Below are positions 2,482-35,483 of a stretch of 36,192 bases of DNA, in pieces (position 1 is the first letter of the stretch; every line of letters starts with the position of its first letter). Origin of the DNA: Gammaproteobacteria bacterium (GTDB lineage: Bacteria > Pseudomonadota > Gammaproteobacteria > SG8-11); contig JAHECY010000035.1 in NCBI GenBank assembly GCA_024641505.1, forward strand, positions 1 to 36,192. The letters are read 5' to 3'. The notes below the pieces were generated by a model. It ran no database searches. It saw nothing but the letters and a program-made list of their open reading frames with translations, and was not told the origin of the DNA. Made by a program: the position numbers and the translations under genes.

Positions 2482-2647
2482 GTAGGGTGCGTATTACGCA
2501 CCGGCTTTTGCTTTTTGGTCGAGAAGCAGCCGAACGAGATGCGCCATTATTTCCTGCACCGATATATTGGCTGGCGGGAAATCCGCAGCGGAGCCACATG
2601 CCTTGGTTTCGTTCAGGTCAAAAACCGGTGCGTGATACGCACCCTAG
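2482..2647. repeat. composite palindromic repeat, unit 1
   Basis: The left end is GTAG followed by the 17-base near-palindrome GGTGCGTATTACGCACC (2486-2502). The right end is the inverted form GGTGCGTGATACGCACC (2627-2643) followed by CTAG. Between them are about 125 noncoding bases. The same architecture, with GTAG outside on the left and CTAC/CTAG outside on the right, recurs at 31312-31407 (plus the piece at 30081) and 35341-35483. This is REP/MITE-like, and I found no coding frame in it. Confidence 0.85.
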
Positions 2648-25100: not shown

Positions 25101-27719
25101 GGCGATGGTGCCAATGCCCTGTCGTTTTTCACCGACAAAAAAATCTATCAAGTCGGTGAGGTTGCCCAAATTCAGTTGCCGGAAGCCACGCAAGGGCGCG
25201 CCCTGTTCACGGTGGAAACCGCCAGTCGTATTCTCAAGCAGGAATGGGTGGTGTTCGAAAAAGGCAAGGCGCCGCGTCTGGCCCTGCCGGTCACTATGGA
25301 CATGAGTCCCACCGCTTATCTGCATATTTCCCTATTGCAGCCGCACGGCGGACGTGACAATGACCGGCCACTGCGCATGTATGGCATCACCCCGATCACC
25401 GTCGAGGATGCGGCCACTCATCTGGCGCCGGTGATCAACGCGGCCAGTGAATGGCGCCCCAATCAACCAGTGAGCGTGGACGTGCATGAAGCCGGGGGCA
25501 AGGCCATGACCTATACCCTGGCGGTCGTCGACGAAGGCTTGCTGGGCCTGACGTCCTTCCGGACACCGGATTTACACCAGGAGTTCTATCGCAAAGAAGC
25601 CTTGGGTATCGCCACCTGGGATTTGTTCGACGAGGTGGCCGGTGCCTACAGTGGTGAATTGCAGAACCTGCTGGCCCTGGGCGGCGGTGATGCGGCGGAT
25701 GCCGCTGACGGTGCGCGTCGCAAGAAACGTTTTCCGCCGGTAATTCGTTTTCTGGGACCGTTTTCCCTGGCGGCCGGTGCTACCAACACCCATAACTTTG
25801 CTTTGCCGCAATACCTGGGGGCGGTGCGCGTGATGGTGGTGGCGGGGCATAAGGGTGCCTTCGGTTCGGCCGAGACTTCGGTGTTTGTGCGTGAACCTCT
25901 GTCCTTGCTGGCTACGGTACCGCGGGTGCTGGGGCCGGGCGAGACCGTGACCGTGCCGCTGAATCTGTTCGTCATGGATGAATCCATCCACGAGGTCAAG
26001 GTGCAAGTGACCGCCGATGAGCATTTCGTGCAGGGGTTCACGCAACCGGTGCCGGTGCATTTCGACCAGCCGGGCGACAAGATCGGCTTCGTGACATTAC
26101 AAGTGGCGGCGGGCACCGGCAAAGGTACGCTTAAAATCAGTGCGCAGGGCGGCAAGTTCAGCACCGCCACGGAAGTCAATCTGGACATTCGCAGCCCCAA
26201 TATTCTCAGTACGCGCCTGACCCGCGCGGTGATCGAGCCGGGGAAGGACTGGAACGCCACGATCATGCCCCATGGTTTGCCGGGAACGAATGCGATGATG
26301 GTGGAAAGCTCCCTGGCGCCGCCATTGAATCTGGAGAGTCGTCTGCAATATTTGATTCGCTATCCTCACGGCTGTCTGGAGCAGGTGACGTCGGCGGTTT
26401 TTCCGCAGTTGTATCTTGATCGCTTAGTGAAATTGGACAAGGACGATCAAGGCAAAGTGGATGCGCATGTCAACGCCGCTATCGATCGCCTGCGGCAGTT
26501 TCAAGCGGCAAACGGCGCGTTTACTTATTGGCCGGGACAGGTAGACATTAATGAGTGGGCCACCAACTATGCCGGCCATTTTCTGGTGGCGGCGCAGACC
26601 AAAGGGTATCAGGTGCCCGCGGAAATGATGCAGGCATGGTTGGGTTACCAGCAGTCGCGTGCGCAAAGCTGGGTGGCCGGCAGCGGTACGCCGCAATTGA
26701 ATCAGGTATATCGCTTGTATACCCTGGCACTGGTGGGGCAGGCGTCGGTGGCGGCCATGAACCGATTACGCGAGTCCTCTCAATTGAGCAATGTGGCGCG
26801 TTGGCAACTGGCGGCGGCCTATCACCTGGCGGGTATGCCCGAAGCCGCCGCGGACATCACCCGCGGTCGTGATCTGAGCGTCGCCGACTATAACGGCGTC
26901 GATGATACTTTTGGCTCCGCGTTGCGCGATCAGGCGATTATACTGGAAAGTCTCGCGGTGCAGCAGCGCCTGGTGGAAGGCAAGACCCTGGCGGAGGATA
27001 TCGCGCGTGCTTTGGCCACGGAGCGTTGGTTCAGTACTCAGTCAGTGGCATACAGTCTGTTGGCGCTGAGCCGTTTTCTGGGGGATCAGGCGCAGGCGGC
27101 TTCGTTTCGTTATGAGCTGCGCCGCAACGGCGCCACCGCCCAGCCGGTAAATGCAGACGCCATCGTCCATCACTATACGCTGCGGGAAATGGCGCCTTCC
27201 GGAGAGCGACTGGCCATCAGTAACAAGTCGCCGGCGCCTTTGTACGTCACGGTCTATGCAAGTGGCATCCCCATGGCAGGTGATGAACGTGCCGCCAGCG
27301 AAGGTTTGGCGCTGGATGTAAGCTACCGCTCCGAAGGTGGTGGCGCCTTGGCGGTGCCAAAAATAGCCCAGGGGACGAGTTTCACCGCGCTGGTTACCGT
27401 GCGCAATACCACGGATCGGGCCTTGAATAATCTGGCGTTGACACAGGTCGTTCCTCCCGGCTGGGAGATCGGTAACGAGCGTCTGGGCGATGCGGCCGCG
27501 GTAAATGTCGGTGATGTGGATTACCAGGATATACGTGATGATCGGGTATTGAGCTACTTCCCGTTGGCGGCGGGGGCGAGCCGCACATTCAAGGTGCGAC
27601 TCACGGCCACTTATCTGGGCCGGTACTATCTGCCGGGAGTTCATGTCGAGGCCATGTATGAAGCTGATAAATTTGCCCATAGCCAAGGCCAGTGGGTGGA
27701 AGTGGTACGCGCACCTTAA
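22158..27719 (+). CDS. alpha-2-macroglobulin-family lipoprotein (YfhM-like)
   Basis: 1853 residues from ATG 22158, chosen because GGGGGG lies 6 bases upstream and the N-terminus then becomes a lipoprotein signal with lipobox LLAAC (C23). The chain has the expected macroglobulin architecture. Repeated beta domains lead to KGYIYGERGVWRPGDDIHLTF in the MG2-like part. The thioester motif GCLEQ has its Cys at C1406, followed by alpha-helical thioester-domain sequence (AIDRLRQFQAANGAFTYWP) and a C-terminal receptor-like domain. Bacterial homologues are anchored in the periplasm and trap attacking proteases through the reactive thioester. Its partner is the PBP1C gene that overlaps its 3' end. Residues after C23 are KDD, consistent with lipoylated anchoring but not decisive for the membrane leaflet. 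Confidence 0.95.
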   Translation: MGERRGARVICLMVLVASLLAACGKDDGVDNAGVDVRGMDPWAPYLSHHTSGLVSRQAPLRVVFLVDVATSEDIGKAADAVLRIEPALPGITTFVSTKEIVLTPEHELTPGQNYSVELLAGKLAGIPHELAPYRFTISVIRQAFAINIEKLASSAAGKVFNVTGTLATADSADNAAVEAVVQAQYLGKEQVLVWRHNSNHRDHEFTINGLQRQVQAADLLLKYQGAGIGVNDSGEQKLTIPALGQFMVAHIRAIQQDRQYVLVELSDPVSTSQDVSGLVSLEGVGSTVERQANSLRIYPDSGVQGKTNVVIDAGLRNKQGQQLGKTVTQQVFFSSQQPQVRFVGNGVILPSNPVLSIPVEAINVHSLQVTAFRVFDDNVGQFLQQNKLGGDYELQRVGRYLWRKTIELPASEVDKWTRYELDATALLKESPGSLFRLTLSINRGNALLSCSEQDNAVTVRKEPAPASQDDENSQESSGWDFIAQYYGEDYDRLWKDRANPCKDAYYDYADGVQAHRNFMASNIGIITKRNDNNDIRIITTDLASAKPLPGVALSLYNFQQQVIGKVTTDSDGFAAIVTPGTPYYVIATKGSDRGYLKLSGGSKLAVSHFDVGGESVSAGIKGYIYGERGVWRPGDDIHLTFVMYDKDDRLPDQHPVTVHLVNPKGQVMQSMTNARPVDDFYVFTLRTAEDAPTGTWEARVLVGGSTFIRKLKIETVKPNRLKIDMDLGAERLALAHMPVQGSLFAQWLHGATAADLKAEVRVKLRPTATRFTTFTDFSFDDPAREFSADEQLLFEDTLDSTGNVKFKADIQVDRATAPGRLKAFFDLKVFEPGGDFSISTSNKEFDPFDAYVGIKPPAGDAARNMLLTDTKHKVQIATVDPQGNALSRSQIRMRIYKLDWKWWWDKSGESLAQYASADYSTALQEGVIATKDGRGEWEFEIKYPDWGRYLLRACDLDGEHCSGGIVYIDWPGWAGREKEQSGDGANALSFFTDKKIYQVGEVAQIQLPEATQGRALFTVETASRILKQEWVVFEKGKAPRLALPVTMDMSPTAYLHISLLQPHGGRDNDRPLRMYGITPITVEDAATHLAPVINAASEWRPNQPVSVDVHEAGGKAMTYTLAVVDEGLLGLTSFRTPDLHQEFYRKEALGIATWDLFDEVAGAYSGELQNLLALGGGDAADAADGARRKKRFPPVIRFLGPFSLAAGATNTHNFALPQYLGAVRVMVVAGHKGAFGSAETSVFVREPLSLLATVPRVLGPGETVTVPLNLFVMDESIHEVKVQVTADEHFVQGFTQPVPVHFDQPGDKIGFVTLQVAAGTGKGTLKISAQGGKFSTATEVNLDIRSPNILSTRLTRAVIEPGKDWNATIMPHGLPGTNAMMVESSLAPPLNLESRLQYLIRYPHGCLEQVTSAVFPQLYLDRLVKLDKDDQGKVDAHVNAAIDRLRQFQAANGAFTYWPGQVDINEWATNYAGHFLVAAQTKGYQVPAEMMQAWLGYQQSRAQSWVAGSGTPQLNQVYRLYTLALVGQASVAAMNRLRESSQLSNVARWQLAAAYHLAGMPEAAADITRGRDLSVADYNGVDDTFGSALRDQAIILESLAVQQRLVEGKTLAEDIARALATERWFSTQSVAYSLLALSRFLGDQAQAASFRYELRRNGATAQPVNADAIVHHYTLREMAPSGERLAISNKSPAPLYVTVYASGIPMAGDERAASEGLALDVSYRSEGGGALAVPKIAQGTSFTALVTVRNTTDRALNNLALTQVVPPGWEIGNERLGDAAAVNVGDVDYQDIRDDRVLSYFPLAAGASRTFKVRLTATYLGRYYLPGVHVEAMYEADKFAHSQGQWVEVVRAP

Positions 27720-30084
27720 GCGTTACCGTACCCGATGGGCGCTGGTCGGCATGGGCTTGCTCATGCTGTGGGTGGGCAATGCATTCTGGCGTTGCCTGCC
27801 GGCGCCATTGTTCAGCGAACCGCCGGCCGCGTTATTGCTGGATCGCGCCGGGGGTGTGCTGGCGGCGCGCATTGCCGCGGATGAGCAATGGCGGTTTAAC
27901 GGTAACGGCGTGATTCCGGAAAAGTACCGGCGTGCCGTGATTCAATTTGAGGACCGGCGCTTTGCCTATCATCCCGGTGTCGACCCGCTGGCCGTGGCGC
28001 GCGCGCTGCGCCAAAACTTCAATCATTCCGGTATCGTCAGCGGTGCCAGTACCTTGAGCATGCAGGTGATTCGCCTGAGTCGCCGCGGTGTACCCCGCAG
28101 TTACCGCGAGAAGCTGATCGAGATGGTGCAGGCGCTGCGCCTGGAGCTGCGTTACAGTAAAGATGAAATCTTCGCCCTGTATGCGGGCCATGCGCCGTTC
28201 GGCGGCAACATTGTGGGTTTGGAAGCGGCAAGCCGCCGATATTTTAGCCGACCGCCGTCACAATTGTCGTGGTCGGAAGCCAGTCTGCTGGCGGTATTGC
28301 CCAACAATCCGGCGCTGTTGCATCCAGGTCGGGGGCGGATCGCCCTGCAAGCCAAGCGCGACCGACTGTTACACCGTCTGCAGAGCGCGGGTCTATTGTC
28401 GGCGCTGGACCTGCGTCTGGCGCTGGCGGAACCGTTGCCGGCGAGACCGCCGCCGCTGCCCATGCATGCCCCCCATCTGCTCGACACCTTGATCCAGCAA
28501 AAGGGCGGGCCGGGTGTATTCGAATCAACCGTGGACGGTGATCTGCAACAAGCGCTCAATGCCATCGCCGGCCGTCATGGCCGGCGCTTGCAGGCCATGG
28601 GCGTGAATAACCTGGCGTTGCTGGTTCTGGACAACCAACGCTCCGAGGTATTGGCCTATTTGGGGAATTTGCCGGAGCAAGGTGTTGCGGAGCAGGGGCG
28701 TGCCGTGGACATCGTGCAACGTGCGCGCAGTACCGGTAGTCTGCTTAAGCCGTTTCTGTATGCGCTGATGTTACAGCACGGGGAGATCCTGCCCACGACC
28801 CTGGTGCCGGACTTGCCGACCCGCTACGGGGGCTATATGCCGGAAAATTATGATCACGCCTATCGAGGCGCGGTACCGGCGCGGCAGGCCCTGGCCCGTT
28901 CCCTCAATGTGCCCGCGGTGCGCATGCTGCAGCAATATGGGGTGGGTAGATTTTATGACGGCCTGCGTGATCTGGGGCTGACAACCTTGGCGCGCGCGCC
29001 CGATGATTACGGTTTGACATTGATCCTGGGTGGCGCGGAAGGCACGTTGTGGGAGCTCACCGCGGCTTATGGCAACCTGACGCGGCGGGCGCGGGCGGTA
29101 CCGGCGTTGCGGCCAACCATGCTGCGCGCGAACGCCTTGACCGTACAGCACGCAGCCCCGGGGACTTTGACTGGCATTATCGGTCCGGGTGCCGCCTGGT
29201 TGACTTTGGATGCCTTGCTGGAGGTGGCGCGGCCGGACACGGAACAATTCTGGCGGCAATTCACCGGCCAGCGCCCGATTGCCTGGAAAACCGGCACCAG
29301 TTACGGTTTACGGGACGCCTGGGCGATCGGTAGCGATGCGCGTTACACGGTTGGCGTGTGGGCGGGTAATGCGAGCGGCGAGGGGCGCGCCGGACTCACC
29401 GGCATCAATGCCGCGGCGCCCGTGTTGTTCGATGTGTTTAATCGCTTGCCGGCCGCGGATTGGGTGTCCAGACCGGAGGCGGATTTGAAGTCCGTAACCG
29501 TCTGCGCGCAAGACGGCTATCTGGCCAACGATTTGTGCGCGACGGAGCAACAGTGGGCGCCGCGCGACAGTTTTTTTAAACGCCAGACACCGCATTTCCA
29601 TCTGGTGCATCTGGATTACAGCGCCCGGTATCAGGTACACAGTCAGTGCGCCGCTACCGCCGATATGCGGCATGTACCGTGGTTCGAGTTGCCGGCGGGC
29701 CAAGCGTTTTTCTATCGACGGCAGCACGGTAATTACCATGCGCCGCCGCCCTATCGTGCCGACTGCCTCGGAGCTCTGGCGGGGCGCGCCGGGGATAATC
29801 CTATCGATTTGCTGTATCCCACGGCGTATACGCGGCTGTATATTCCTCGCGACCTGGCCGGCGTGCGCAGCCGCACCGTCTTTAGGGCGGCGCATCGTGA
29901 CGCGCGGGCGATTCTGTACTGGCATCTCGACGATGTGTATCTCGGCGCCACCGATACGTTCCATGAGCTGGCGCTGGACATCACTCCCGGCGCGCACCGC
30001 CTGACCTTGGTCGACGGTGCCGGCAACCGCTTGGTACGGTCATTTCAGGTGTTGGGGATCACGCAAGACCCAGAGGCGCTGTAG
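27658..30084 (+). CDS. pbpC: penicillin-binding protein 1C
   Basis: About 808 residues. The N-terminal membrane anchor (WALVGMGLLMLWVGNAFW) is followed by a family-51 transglycosylase domain with the catalytic Glu in FEDRRF (E98). The transpeptidase domain has STGSLLKP (S361, K364), SLN in ARSLNVPAV and KTGTS (K544-S548). A C-terminal PBP1C-specific domain follows (from about 620). It builds and cross-links peptidoglycan and is thought to repair damage where the neighbouring macroglobulin acts. The start is uncertain: ATG 27658 has GAGG six bases upstream and overlaps the macroglobulin gene by 62 bases; ATG 27643 is the alternative. The stop TAG (30082-30084) lies inside the repeat end used by the IS110 insertion, and the reading frame is intact. 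Confidence 0.94.
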   Translation: MKLINLPIAKASGWKWYAHLKRYRTRWALVGMGLLMLWVGNAFWRCLPAPLFSEPPAALLLDRAGGVLAARIAADEQWRFNGNGVIPEKYRRAVIQFEDRRFAYHPGVDPLAVARALRQNFNHSGIVSGASTLSMQVIRLSRRGVPRSYREKLIEMVQALRLELRYSKDEIFALYAGHAPFGGNIVGLEAASRRYFSRPPSQLSWSEASLLAVLPNNPALLHPGRGRIALQAKRDRLLHRLQSAGLLSALDLRLALAEPLPARPPPLPMHAPHLLDTLIQQKGGPGVFESTVDGDLQQALNAIAGRHGRRLQAMGVNNLALLVLDNQRSEVLAYLGNLPEQGVAEQGRAVDIVQRARSTGSLLKPFLYALMLQHGEILPTTLVPDLPTRYGGYMPENYDHAYRGAVPARQALARSLNVPAVRMLQQYGVGRFYDGLRDLGLTTLARAPDDYGLTLILGGAEGTLWELTAAYGNLTRRARAVPALRPTMLRANALTVQHAAPGTLTGIIGPGAAWLTLDALLEVARPDTEQFWRQFTGQRPIAWKTGTSYGLRDAWAIGSDARYTVGVWAGNASGEGRAGLTGINAAAPVLFDVFNRLPAADWVSRPEADLKSVTVCAQDGYLANDLCATEQQWAPRDSFFKRQTPHFHLVHLDYSARYQVHSQCAATADMRHVPWFELPAGQAFFYRRQHGNYHAPPPYRADCLGALAGRAGDNPIDLLYPTAYTRLYIPRDLAGVRSRTVFRAAHRDARAILYWHLDDVYLGATDTFHELALDITPGAHRLTLVDGAGNRLVRSFQVLGITQDPEAL

Positions 30085-30097
30085 ATACTGTCTTGCC

Positions 30098-30103
30098 GCT
30101 CAA
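30098..30103 (-). promoter_or_regulatory. possible -35 half of a junction promoter
   Basis: TTGAGC on the minus strand overlaps the transposase stop. If the element circularises at the CT core, it would lie 15 bases before TATATC from the left end (31309-31304). Such a junction promoter is known for IS110 circles and would drive bridge RNA and transposase only from the excised form. The match to sigma-70 consensus is partial (4/6 and 4/6, short spacer). Confidence 0.35.
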
Positions 30104-31062
30104 GAAGCAAGTCCTAATTTTGGGTCAAAAGGCAGTCCGGATTTAAGGACGCCGTAGACGATATGTAAGAGCTTGCGCATGGCGGCACAAACGATGGCTT
30201 TGCCGTGTTTACCGTTGGCCTTGAGGCGCAGGCAAAAGGGGCGAATGACGGGGTTATGCCGCCATGCCACGAGCGCTGGCATATAGAGCAGTTTGCGTAA
30301 CAAAGAATCGCCGGTTTTGGATAAGCGGGCACGCCCTACCAAGGTCCCTGATTCACGCAAGGCGGGGTTCAAACCGGTAAAGGCGATAATTTGCTTAATG
30401 TGCTGGAAGCGGTTGATATTGCCCAATAAGGCTAGCAGGGCGGCGCTGGTGGACTGGCCGATGCCGGGGATGGTTTCTAACAATTTGCTCTGGCGTTTGA
30501 GGTCTGGATCGTTGTCGATGTGTTGACGGATAGCCGCCTTGACTTGCTCGATCTGTTCGGCCAGCGTGTTCAGCATCTGCTCAAGGGAGCTGACGATGGC
30601 GGAATTGGCGACCAGCAGCCGGTTTTTTTCCATCTGCTGCATTTCCAGCAGGCTGTCGAGGCGGCGAACCAAGGCCTGCAGGGCGCGCACATTGGGCGCA
30701 GGGGCTTGCCACAAGGGCAGTGAATGGCCGGTTTGCGCACAGAAGCGGGCAATGAGTTTGGCATCGCCTCGGTCCGTCTTGGAGCGCGACAGCTCGCTTT
30801 TGGCAAAGGCGGCGATGCGCGCGGGATTGACTACGCTCAGACGCAAGTGATGATCGGAAAGAAAGTTGGCCAAGGAGTCACCGTAGACGCCGGTGGCCTC
30901 CATGCAAATGTGCGTGTCAGCAAGGGGTTGCAGCCAAGTAAGGAATTGCTCAAACCCCCGTGGATTGTTGCCGAAGGACTTGAACTTGTATTTGCCGCTG
31001 GGCAACAACGCAGCGACGTCGAACTTGTTTTTAGCGATATCAATACCGATACTGGTGAGCAT
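30100..31062 (-). CDS. IS110-family DEDD recombinase (transposase)
   Basis: 320 residues. The N-terminal RuvC-like DEDD domain has D8 (GIDIAKNKFD), E55 (CMEATG), D97 and D100 (KTDRGDAKLIA). A helical linker follows, then the C-terminal Transposase_20 domain with IPGIGQSTSAALLALLG and the candidate catalytic Ser S238 in ALRESGT. All catalytic positions are present and the frame is intact, so the enzyme is probably active. IS110 recombinases cut and join DNA at a 2-base core, guided in the IS621 type by an element-encoded bridge RNA. The start ATG 31062 lies just after GGGTTTCC. The stop lies 15 bases inside the right end of the element. Confidence 0.96.
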   Translation of the reverse strand: MLTSIGIDIAKNKFDVAALLPSGKYKFKSFGNNPRGFEQFLTWLQPLADTHICMEATGVYGDSLANFLSDHHLRLSVVNPARIAAFAKSELSRSKTDRGDAKLIARFCAQTGHSLPLWQAPAPNVRALQALVRRLDSLLEMQQMEKNRLLVANSAIVSSLEQMLNTLAEQIEQVKAAIRQHIDNDPDLKRQSKLLETIPGIGQSTSAALLALLGNINRFQHIKQIIAFTGLNPALRESGTLVGRARLSKTGDSLLRKLLYMPALVAWRHNPVIRPFCLRLKANGKHGKAIVCAAMRKLLHIVYGVLKSGLPFDPKLGLAS

Positions 31063-31121
31063 AGGAAACCCTGTTAAAATGATTGATGATGTCTGTCACG
31101 AGCAATCCGGTCGGGTTCAAC

Positions 31122-31165
31122 CTTATGCATACAGGCTCACGCCGCTGGCGGGCCTTAGATACTGT
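31122..31165 (-). other. donor-binding guides of the putative bridge RNA
   Basis: The left donor guide with core, ACAGTATCT (31165-31157), is identical to the right end of the element plus core (30091-30083). The right donor guide ATAAG (31126-31122) is the reverse complement of CTTAT, which is the core plus first bases at the left end (31311-31307). This is the order and polarity expected of an IS110-type donor loop. Confidence 0.72.
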
Positions 31166-31203
31166 ACGAACACAATGACTGGAAAGGCGGCAAGGGAGCC
31201 GAT

Positions 31204-31236
31204 CTACGTCGCTGGCTCCAGGGCCCAAGTGTGCGT
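31204..31236 (-). other. target-binding guides of the putative bridge RNA
   Basis: The left guide ACGCACACT (31236-31228, core CT at its end) matches the target top strand ACGCACCCT at 8 of 9 positions; the one mismatch is just before the core. The right guide GCGACGTAG (31212-31204) would pair with CTACGTCGC. The actual right target is CTACAGCGC, so 7 of 9 fit, including CTAC next to the crossover. The right guide lies in the loop of a GGAGCC/GGCTCC hairpin. Confidence 0.72.
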
Positions 31237-31311
31237 TCGACTTCCTCTTGCCGCTGCCCGATGATCAGTCGGGGATTTTCTCACTTGTCAGCGAGAGAAT
31301 CGAGATATAAG

Positions 31312-31407
31312 GGTGCGTATTACGCACCGCGTTGTTATTGTGCGATCAAGGCAACCATGCATGCGCTTCGATTCGGATAAAAAGCCGATGCGTAATACGC
31401 ACCCTAC
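31312..31407. repeat. composite palindromic repeat, unit 2 (split by the IS110 element)
   Basis: The left palindrome GGTGCGTATTACGCACC is at 31312-31328; its outer GTAG is now at 30081-30084 on the far side of the insertion sequence. The inverted right palindrome GATGCGTAATACGCACC is at 31387-31403, followed by CTAC. The 58 bases between are noncoding. Without the insertion the unit would be exactly 100 bases and would start at the pbpC stop codon. Confidence 0.85.
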
Positions 31408-31453
31408 ACTGCGATTGAGGCTTTGTCTGCACGGCCGGTGTCACGCGGCTTTC

Positions 31454-35061: not shown

Positions 35062-35220
35062 GGCGTGTCTCCTCTCTGAATCCATTGGCGATTAGTTTTT
35101 ACTTCAACCATGGGATTATTAAACCAGAGTCAGATTACCCGTCGATGACTCGCGCCTTACCGGGGCCTTACTGATTTCTTGCAGTTTTGAGACAAAAAGT
35201 ATCGATTTACTGGTGACTGG

Positions 35221-35339
35221 CGGATAGCGGATAGCGGATAGCGGATAGCGAATAGCGAATAGCGAATAGCGAATAGCGAATAGCGAATAGCGAATAGCGA
35301 ATAGCGAATAGCGAATAGCGAATAGCGAATAGCGAATAG
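35221..35339. repeat. heptanucleotide tandem repeat, 17 copies
   Basis: Four copies of CGGATAG (35221-35248) are followed by thirteen copies of CGAATAG (35249-35339), all perfect and in phase. The array abuts the GTAG end of repeat unit 3 with one base between. Open frames across it on the minus strand (FAIRYSL repeats) are a by-product of the 7-base period and not a gene. Confidence 0.97.
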
Positions 35340-35340
35340 C

Positions 35341-35483
35341 GTAGGGTGCGTATTACGCACCGTTTGTGCCGTTATTTCGGTGACGTGTTCAAGACCGTGG
35401 GCTGATGCGCAACACGCACCGCCCGCGCTGTTGCCTGGGTGGCCCACTGAAGATAACGCACCGGTGCGTTATATGCACCCTAC
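35341..35483. repeat. composite palindromic repeat, unit 3
   Basis: The left end is GTAG plus GGTGCGTATTACGCACC (core 35345-35361). A diverged inner copy GATGCGCAACACGCACC lies at 35404-35420. The inverted right end is GGTGCGTTATATGCACC (35463-35479), followed by CTAC. Total 143 bases between the tandem array and the 3' end of tex. Confidence 0.85.

What the first reader, a model, noticed from the sequence alone, without database searches (positions are those of the whole stretch)
30083..31311. IS110 element inserted exactly into the end of a host dispersed palindromic repeat
Read directly: deleting 30085-31311 (one CT core kept) joins GTAG to GGTGCGTATTACGCACCG and recreates 22 bases identical to the intact repeat ends at 2482 and 35341. 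The insertion is therefore clean, the core is CT (AG on the plus strand), and the target is this repeat family. IS621 of E. coli likewise uses REP elements, but this repeat is a different sequence. The case suggests that dispersed repeats are a recurrent safe harbour for bridge-RNA elements.
Basis: partly seen in the sequence, partly recalled or inferred. Interest (0 to 1): 0.88.

Follow-up and report, generated by a model that had tools for sequence, protein, structure and literature searches.

The report
IS621-like element in a REP repeat
A mobile DNA element whose own guide RNA tells it where to insert has landed exactly at the end of one of the host's hundreds of short palindromic repeats; this habit is already known from E. 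coli IS621, and here related elements in other bacteria can be seen to carry guide letters that match each host's own repeat.

Summary
Window 30085-31311 is a 1,227-bp IS110-family element (minus strand, DEDD + Ser recombinase, 47% identical to IS621) inserted at the CT of a GTAG-headed palindrome. Removing it restores 22 nt identical to intact copies at 2482 and 35341. The repeat is a REP: 372 copies in the genome (reversed-pattern control 0), mostly in inverted pairs, with a RAYT gene present. A covariance model built without the window finds a bridge RNA at 31112-31277 (106 bits, E 2e-29). Its left guide reads ACGCAC-a-CT against the target ACGCAC-C-CT, and its right guide GTAG pairs with the REP head. 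Among 23 related elements, guides match their own targets better than each other's (0 of 20,000 permutations as good). Of 13 testable elements whose right target is CTAC, 12 abut a palindrome, each host with its own; of 9 others, none do. So the right guide is set to the shared REP head while the left guide differs with each host's stem. IS110 targeting of REPs (2003, 2006) and bridge RNA (2024) are known; this is a new member of a known kind with a useful comparative pattern. No strain with the empty REP site was found: the congener lacks both REP and IS.

The parts
30085..31311 (-). IS110/IS621-like insertion element, 1,227 bp including one CT core
   Evidence: Deleting it restores a 22-nt REP end; its ends share the donor motif ACAGTAT-CT-TATATC with relatives
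30100..31062 (-). IS110 recombinase, 320 aa; residues D8, E55, D97, D100, S238 align with IS621 D11, E60, D102, D105, S241
   Evidence: PF01548 E 3.7e-30, PF02371 E 1.4e-24; NF033542 245.6 bits; PDB ISCro4 and IS621; alignment with IS621, 148/315 identical
31112..31277 (-). Bridge RNA: 5' stem-loop, target-binding loop, donor-binding loop
   Evidence: Covariance model from six relatives without the window: 106.1 bits, E 1.6e-29, full length
31228..31236 (-). Left target guide ACGCACACT (8/9 to target ACGCACCCT)
31204..31207 (-). Right target guide GTAG (4/4 with CTAC)
31157..31165 (-). Left donor guide ACAGTATCT (identical to the element's right end)
31122..31126 (-). Right donor guide ATAAG (complement of CTTAT at the left end)
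   Evidence: read on the sequence
30083..30084 (-). Core CT at the right end of the element; also AG of the GTAG head and of the pbpC stop codon
31310..31311 (-). Core CT at the left end of the element
30081..30084 (+). GTAG head of the interrupted REP
31312..31328 (+). Palindromic stem of the interrupted REP, GGTGCGTATTACGCACC
31387..31407 (-). Inverted partner REP (doublet), head intact
2482..2502 (+). Intact REP copy used as reference
35341..35361 (+). Intact REP copy used as reference
27643..30084 (+). pbpC-like gene whose TAG stop codon lies in the REP head and survives the insertion

Best explanation
This is an IS621-type bridge-RNA insertion element that inserted into a REP of the host because its guide RNA specifies the foot of that REP. 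The RNA's target-binding loop pairs through its left guide (ACGCAC-a-CT) with one strand of the palindrome stem, and through its right guide (GTAG) with the CTAC that is the complement of the universal REP head; the recombinase then joined the circular element to the CT core. In relatives the right guide stays GTAG while the left guide carries the letters of whichever REP stem the host has. Shown: element limits, restored repeat, REP abundance, conserved catalytic residues, bridge RNA homology, guide-target match here and across relatives. Inferred: that the RNA is made, that it did the targeting, that a circle was the intermediate, and that the guides changed to follow the hosts' REPs rather than elements merely surviving where a matching REP exists.
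For: Restored 22-nt repeat. 372 REP copies, control 0; RAYT gene over its cut-off (NF047646, 163 bits) flanked by REPs. CM hit 106 bits from a model without the window. Guide-target match against swapped targets: left 7.96/9 own vs 6.14 other, right 5.22/6 vs 4.64/6, 0 of 20,000 permutations each; right guide exact in register in 21 of 23, including GCAG for a CTGC target (L034) and TCAG for CTGA targets. Palindrome abutting the core: 12/13 CTAC elements, 0/9 others, Fisher p 2e-5, 4% by chance. Inverted partner repeat 50-140 bp away in 9 CTAC elements: window, L035, L036, L037, L039, L086 and L095 with an intact GTAG head; L082 (ATAG head) and L091 (GCAG/GCGG) with an altered head. The Methylobacter target is repeated 73 and 99 times in its two hosts and 0 times in five other genomes including this one.
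Against: The left guide has one mismatch (A for C at -1) to every REP foot sampled: 0 of 107 feet in 292 kb carry the A. Only one copy exists in spite of hundreds of targets. For L077, 160 kb of its host held no further copy of the target, so high REP copy number is not shown for every host. The guide permutations ignore kinship among elements. Folding energy of the RNA alone is not unusual (z -0.5).
Confidence: 0.92

Rival explanations
1. The element arrived by recombination or with a larger segment, and a REP flank was acquired by chance or by a REP later landing beside it, so there was no RNA-guided insertion into the REP.
For: The congener has neither REP nor IS here, so the order of events is not directly seen; the left guide carries one mismatch.
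Against: The repeat is split exactly at the core that the guides predict, both halves are present, and 12 of 13 related CTAC elements show the same anatomy with different palindromes.
Confidence: 0.04
2. Protein-based recognition of the hairpin, as proposed for palindrome-targeting IS before 2024, rather than guide RNA, directs the element to REP ends.
For: 12 of 13 CTAC elements lie at a hairpin foot.
Against: Guide letters follow target letters across elements; non-palindromic targets of close kin (L034, L090) match their guides equally well; IS621 itself is proven RNA-guided (PMC11208160).
Confidence: 0.04

Closest known systems
IS621 (E. coli), IS110 family, bridge RNA
   Same: Recombinase 47% identical with all catalytic residues; guide RNA in the left end; donor ACAGTAT-CT-T[A/G]TAT; CT core; right guide GTAG; inserts at the foot of a GTAG-headed REP
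   Different: Left guide ACGCACACT instead of ATCGGGCCT, matching a REP stem of another sequence; shorter right end (15 bp after the stop codon)
ISCro4 (PDB 9t56)
   Same: Best solved relative by sequence, E 1.9e-81
   Different: Its natural targets were not examined here
ISPpu9, ISPpu10, ISPa11 (IS110/IS1111 elements in Pseudomonas REPs, PMC1525189, PMC11187229)
   Same: RNA-carrying DEDD elements with REPs as targets (the RNA is reported for ISPa11 in PMC11187229)
   Different: Other REP families and insertion points; ISPa11 is of the IS1111 type with the RNA downstream of tnp

Membership tests
IS110 family (IS621-like, IS110 group) | DEDD RuvC-like domain plus Transposase_20 domain | tested here: met
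   PF01548 and PF02371 over cut-off, NF033542
IS110 family (IS621-like, IS110 group) | Catalytic D, E, D, D and serine | tested here: met
   All five align with IS621
IS110 family (IS621-like, IS110 group) | Structured guide RNA upstream of the recombinase with target and donor loops | tested here: met
   CM hit 31112-31277, 106 bits; guides match target and donor
IS110 family (IS621-like, IS110 group) | CT core shared by target and donor, no other target duplication | tested here: met
IS110 family (IS621-like, IS110 group) | Circular intermediate and RNA-guided recombination | not testable with these tools
   Needs an experiment
IS1111 group | Guide RNA downstream of the recombinase gene | tested here: not met
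   Only 15 bp lie between the stop codon and the right end; the RNA is upstream
GTAG-type REP (target) | GTAG head plus palindromic stem, high copy number, inverted pairs | tested here: met
   372 copies; +- and -+ neighbours outnumber ++ and --, 73 to 33
GTAG-type REP (target) | RAYT gene flanked by the repeat | tested here: met
   L033 311-862, NF047646 163 bits, REPs on both sides

The most novel reading that the evidence does not exclude
Across the IS621-like lineage the guide is split in function: the right half is held to the universal REP head, which lets an element meet REPs in almost any host, while the left half is rewritten to each host's REP stem, so these elements follow REP families through repeated retargeting, and sometimes leave REPs (right guide GCAG or TCAG) and perhaps return. 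The label REP/non-REP needs at least 2 and most likely about 5 changes on the recombinase tree.
Probability: 0.55. Interest if true: 0.55.

Novelty: new member of a known kind. Interest (0 to 1): 0.4.

Why it matters
Each natural element is a worked example of target reprogramming: same machinery, different left guide, different repeat. The set shows which part of the guide evolution keeps fixed and which it rewrites, it bears on how guide and target change together without losing mobility, and it offers natural guide-target pairs for bridge recombinases. Here the insertion also left the neighbouring gene's stop codon intact.

Tried and rejected
Looked for further copies in the genome: none. 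Looked for the element in the 4 other genomes of the family and order: none at E 1e-60. Looked for an empty REP site in the congener G001: pbpC and the macro-domain gene lie about 24 bp apart with neither REP nor IS, so it neither supports nor refutes. Looked for REP variants with the A that the left guide asks for: none in 292 kb. Tested RAYT presence as a mark of REP-targeting hosts: 19 of 21 genomes have a match, so it does not discriminate. Random 160-kb samples of relatives' hosts were too small to count REPs well. Single-sequence folding gave no unusual stability. Rfam holds no matching family at its cut-off in the window except a tRNA. Elements L092-L094 and L097 were fetched but their right ends did not carry the donor motif where expected, so they were left out of the guide table.

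Full report
Observation. The element at 30085-31311 is bounded by AG on the plus strand (CT on the element's strand) at 30083-30084 and 31310-31311. Joining the flanks gives ..GCGCTGTAG|GGTGCGTATTACGCACCGC.., whose 22 nt GTAGGGTGCGTATTACGCACCG also stand intact at 2482 and 35341. The upstream gene, pbpC-like, ends in the TAG of the REP head and keeps it after insertion.

The target. GTAGGGTGCGTATTACGCACC occurs 372 times with up to two mismatches in the 4.78-Mb draft genome, 0 in the reversed control. In 292 kb of own-genome sequence, largely stretches chosen because they hold copies, close neighbours lie more often in opposite (73) than in the same orientation (33). A 183-aa HUH-type protein (NF047646, REP-associated tyrosine transposase, 163 bits against a cut-off of 80) is flanked by such repeats. 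GTAG-headed palindromes with RAYTs are REPs by the usual description (PMC3733652, PMC2817692). In the window the interrupted copy has an inverted partner at 31387-31407.

The element. The 320-aa protein has both IS110 domains, its nearest solved relatives are ISCro4 (E 1.9e-81) and IS621 (E 8.7e-77), and D8, E55, D97, D100 and S238 align with the catalytic residues of IS621, 148 of 315 aligned residues being identical (the residue numbers of IS621 are from my own knowledge of the published structure). The donor junction ACAGTAT-CT-TATATC differs by one base from that of IS621 as read from an E. coli copy, ACAGTAT-CT-TGTAT. A covariance model built from six relatives without the window finds one match in the window, 31112-31277 minus, over the full model, 106 bits, E 1.6e-29; the same model finds IS621 and 16 other elements. 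The RNA lies upstream of the gene, as in the IS110 and not the IS1111 group.

Guides. In register with the published layout (left guide nine bases including the core, right guide four; PMC11208160) the window's left guide is ACGCACACT against the target ACGCACCCT, and the right guide is GTAG against CTAC. I set the ends of 22 further elements by the donor motifs. Scoring every RNA against every target, own targets fit better than swapped ones (left 7.96 vs 6.14 of 9; right 5.22 vs 4.64 of 6), no permutation of 20,000 reaching the observed mean. The right guide in register is exact in 21 of 23 by script, and changes with the target: GCAG for CTGC in L034, TCAG for CTGA in L038, L040, L079, L085, L087 and L090. 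Kinship is not corrected for in these permutations.

REP foot. Fourteen of the 23 elements have the right target CTAC. Of the 13 with enough flank, 12 have a 7-bp stem (one mismatch allowed) ending at the core, against 0 of 9 elements with other right targets (Fisher p 2e-5; 4% of shuffled flanks). The exception, L091 of Xanthomonas sacchari, lies at an imperfect GGAGCGGCTTCAGCCGCGAC-type repeat. Nine CTAC elements have an inverted partner of the same repeat 50-140 bp away, seven with an intact GTAG head and two (L082, L091) with an altered one. The palindromes differ from host to host: GGTACGCACTGCGTACC in Methylobacter, GGTGGGCGCAGCCCACC in a Desulfuromonadales MAG, GGCGGACATGGTCCGCC in L082, GTTGGGTTT..AACCCAAC in the cyanobacterium Kovacikia, and so on. 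YGCGTACCCTAC occurs 73 and 99 times in the two Methylobacter genomes and not at all in five other genomes tested, including this one. On the recombinase tree the CTAC label needs 5 changes, at least 2 by well supported branches, so lineages have switched; L034 (CTGC, no palindrome) sits beside the Methylobacter elements.

Mechanism. The simplest account is RNA-guided insertion as proven for IS621: circle formation, pairing of the target loop with the REP foot, recombination at CT. That this happened here is inferred from anatomy. The one mismatch at -1 of the left guide is shared by all 107 REP feet sampled; it may mean the guide was tuned to another host, or that this position is lax. It may also bear on why only one copy is present.

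Sister site. The only congener genome (79% complete, about 70% DNA identity here) has pbpC and the macro-domain gene side by side with neither REP nor element. The REP doublet therefore was gained in the window's lineage or lost in the other; the empty REP site itself was not found.

What is known. Targeting of REPs by IS110 elements was described for IS621 in 2003 (Choi et al., cited in PMC11208160) and for ISPpu9, ISPpu10 and ISPa11 (PMC1525189); guide RNAs were described in 2024 (PMC11208160, PMC11208158, PMC11187229). Guide-target covariation over thousands of IS110 elements is also in PMC11208160. I found no paper in the held library that states the split between a constant right guide on the REP head and a left guide that varies with the host's REP stem, but supplements could not be read and subscription papers are not held. 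The finding is therefore a new member of a known kind, with that pattern as its most useful part.

Noticed in passing
window 35220-35341: A 7-bp tandem array (GCGAATA, 17.4 copies, 99% matches) runs straight into the GTAG head of the REP at 35341.
   Followed up: no
window 31228-31236: The element's left guide carries A where all sampled host REPs carry C next to the core; 0 of 107 feet have the A.
   Followed up: partly
G001:C102 (L070) against window 30084-31453: The congener has convergent pbpC and macro-domain genes about 24 bp apart, without REP and IS: probable REP gain in the window's lineage between two convergent genes.
   Followed up: yes
L081 flanks: An IS621-like element without a palindrome sits in a CACGGAGACACGGAG-type repeat, possibly another repeated target.
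   Followed up: no
L038, L040, L079, L085, L087: A second target class of the clade: right guide GGGTCAG against CTGACCC (CTGATC in L087), five elements, no palindrome; the nature of this target was not worked out.
   Followed up: partly
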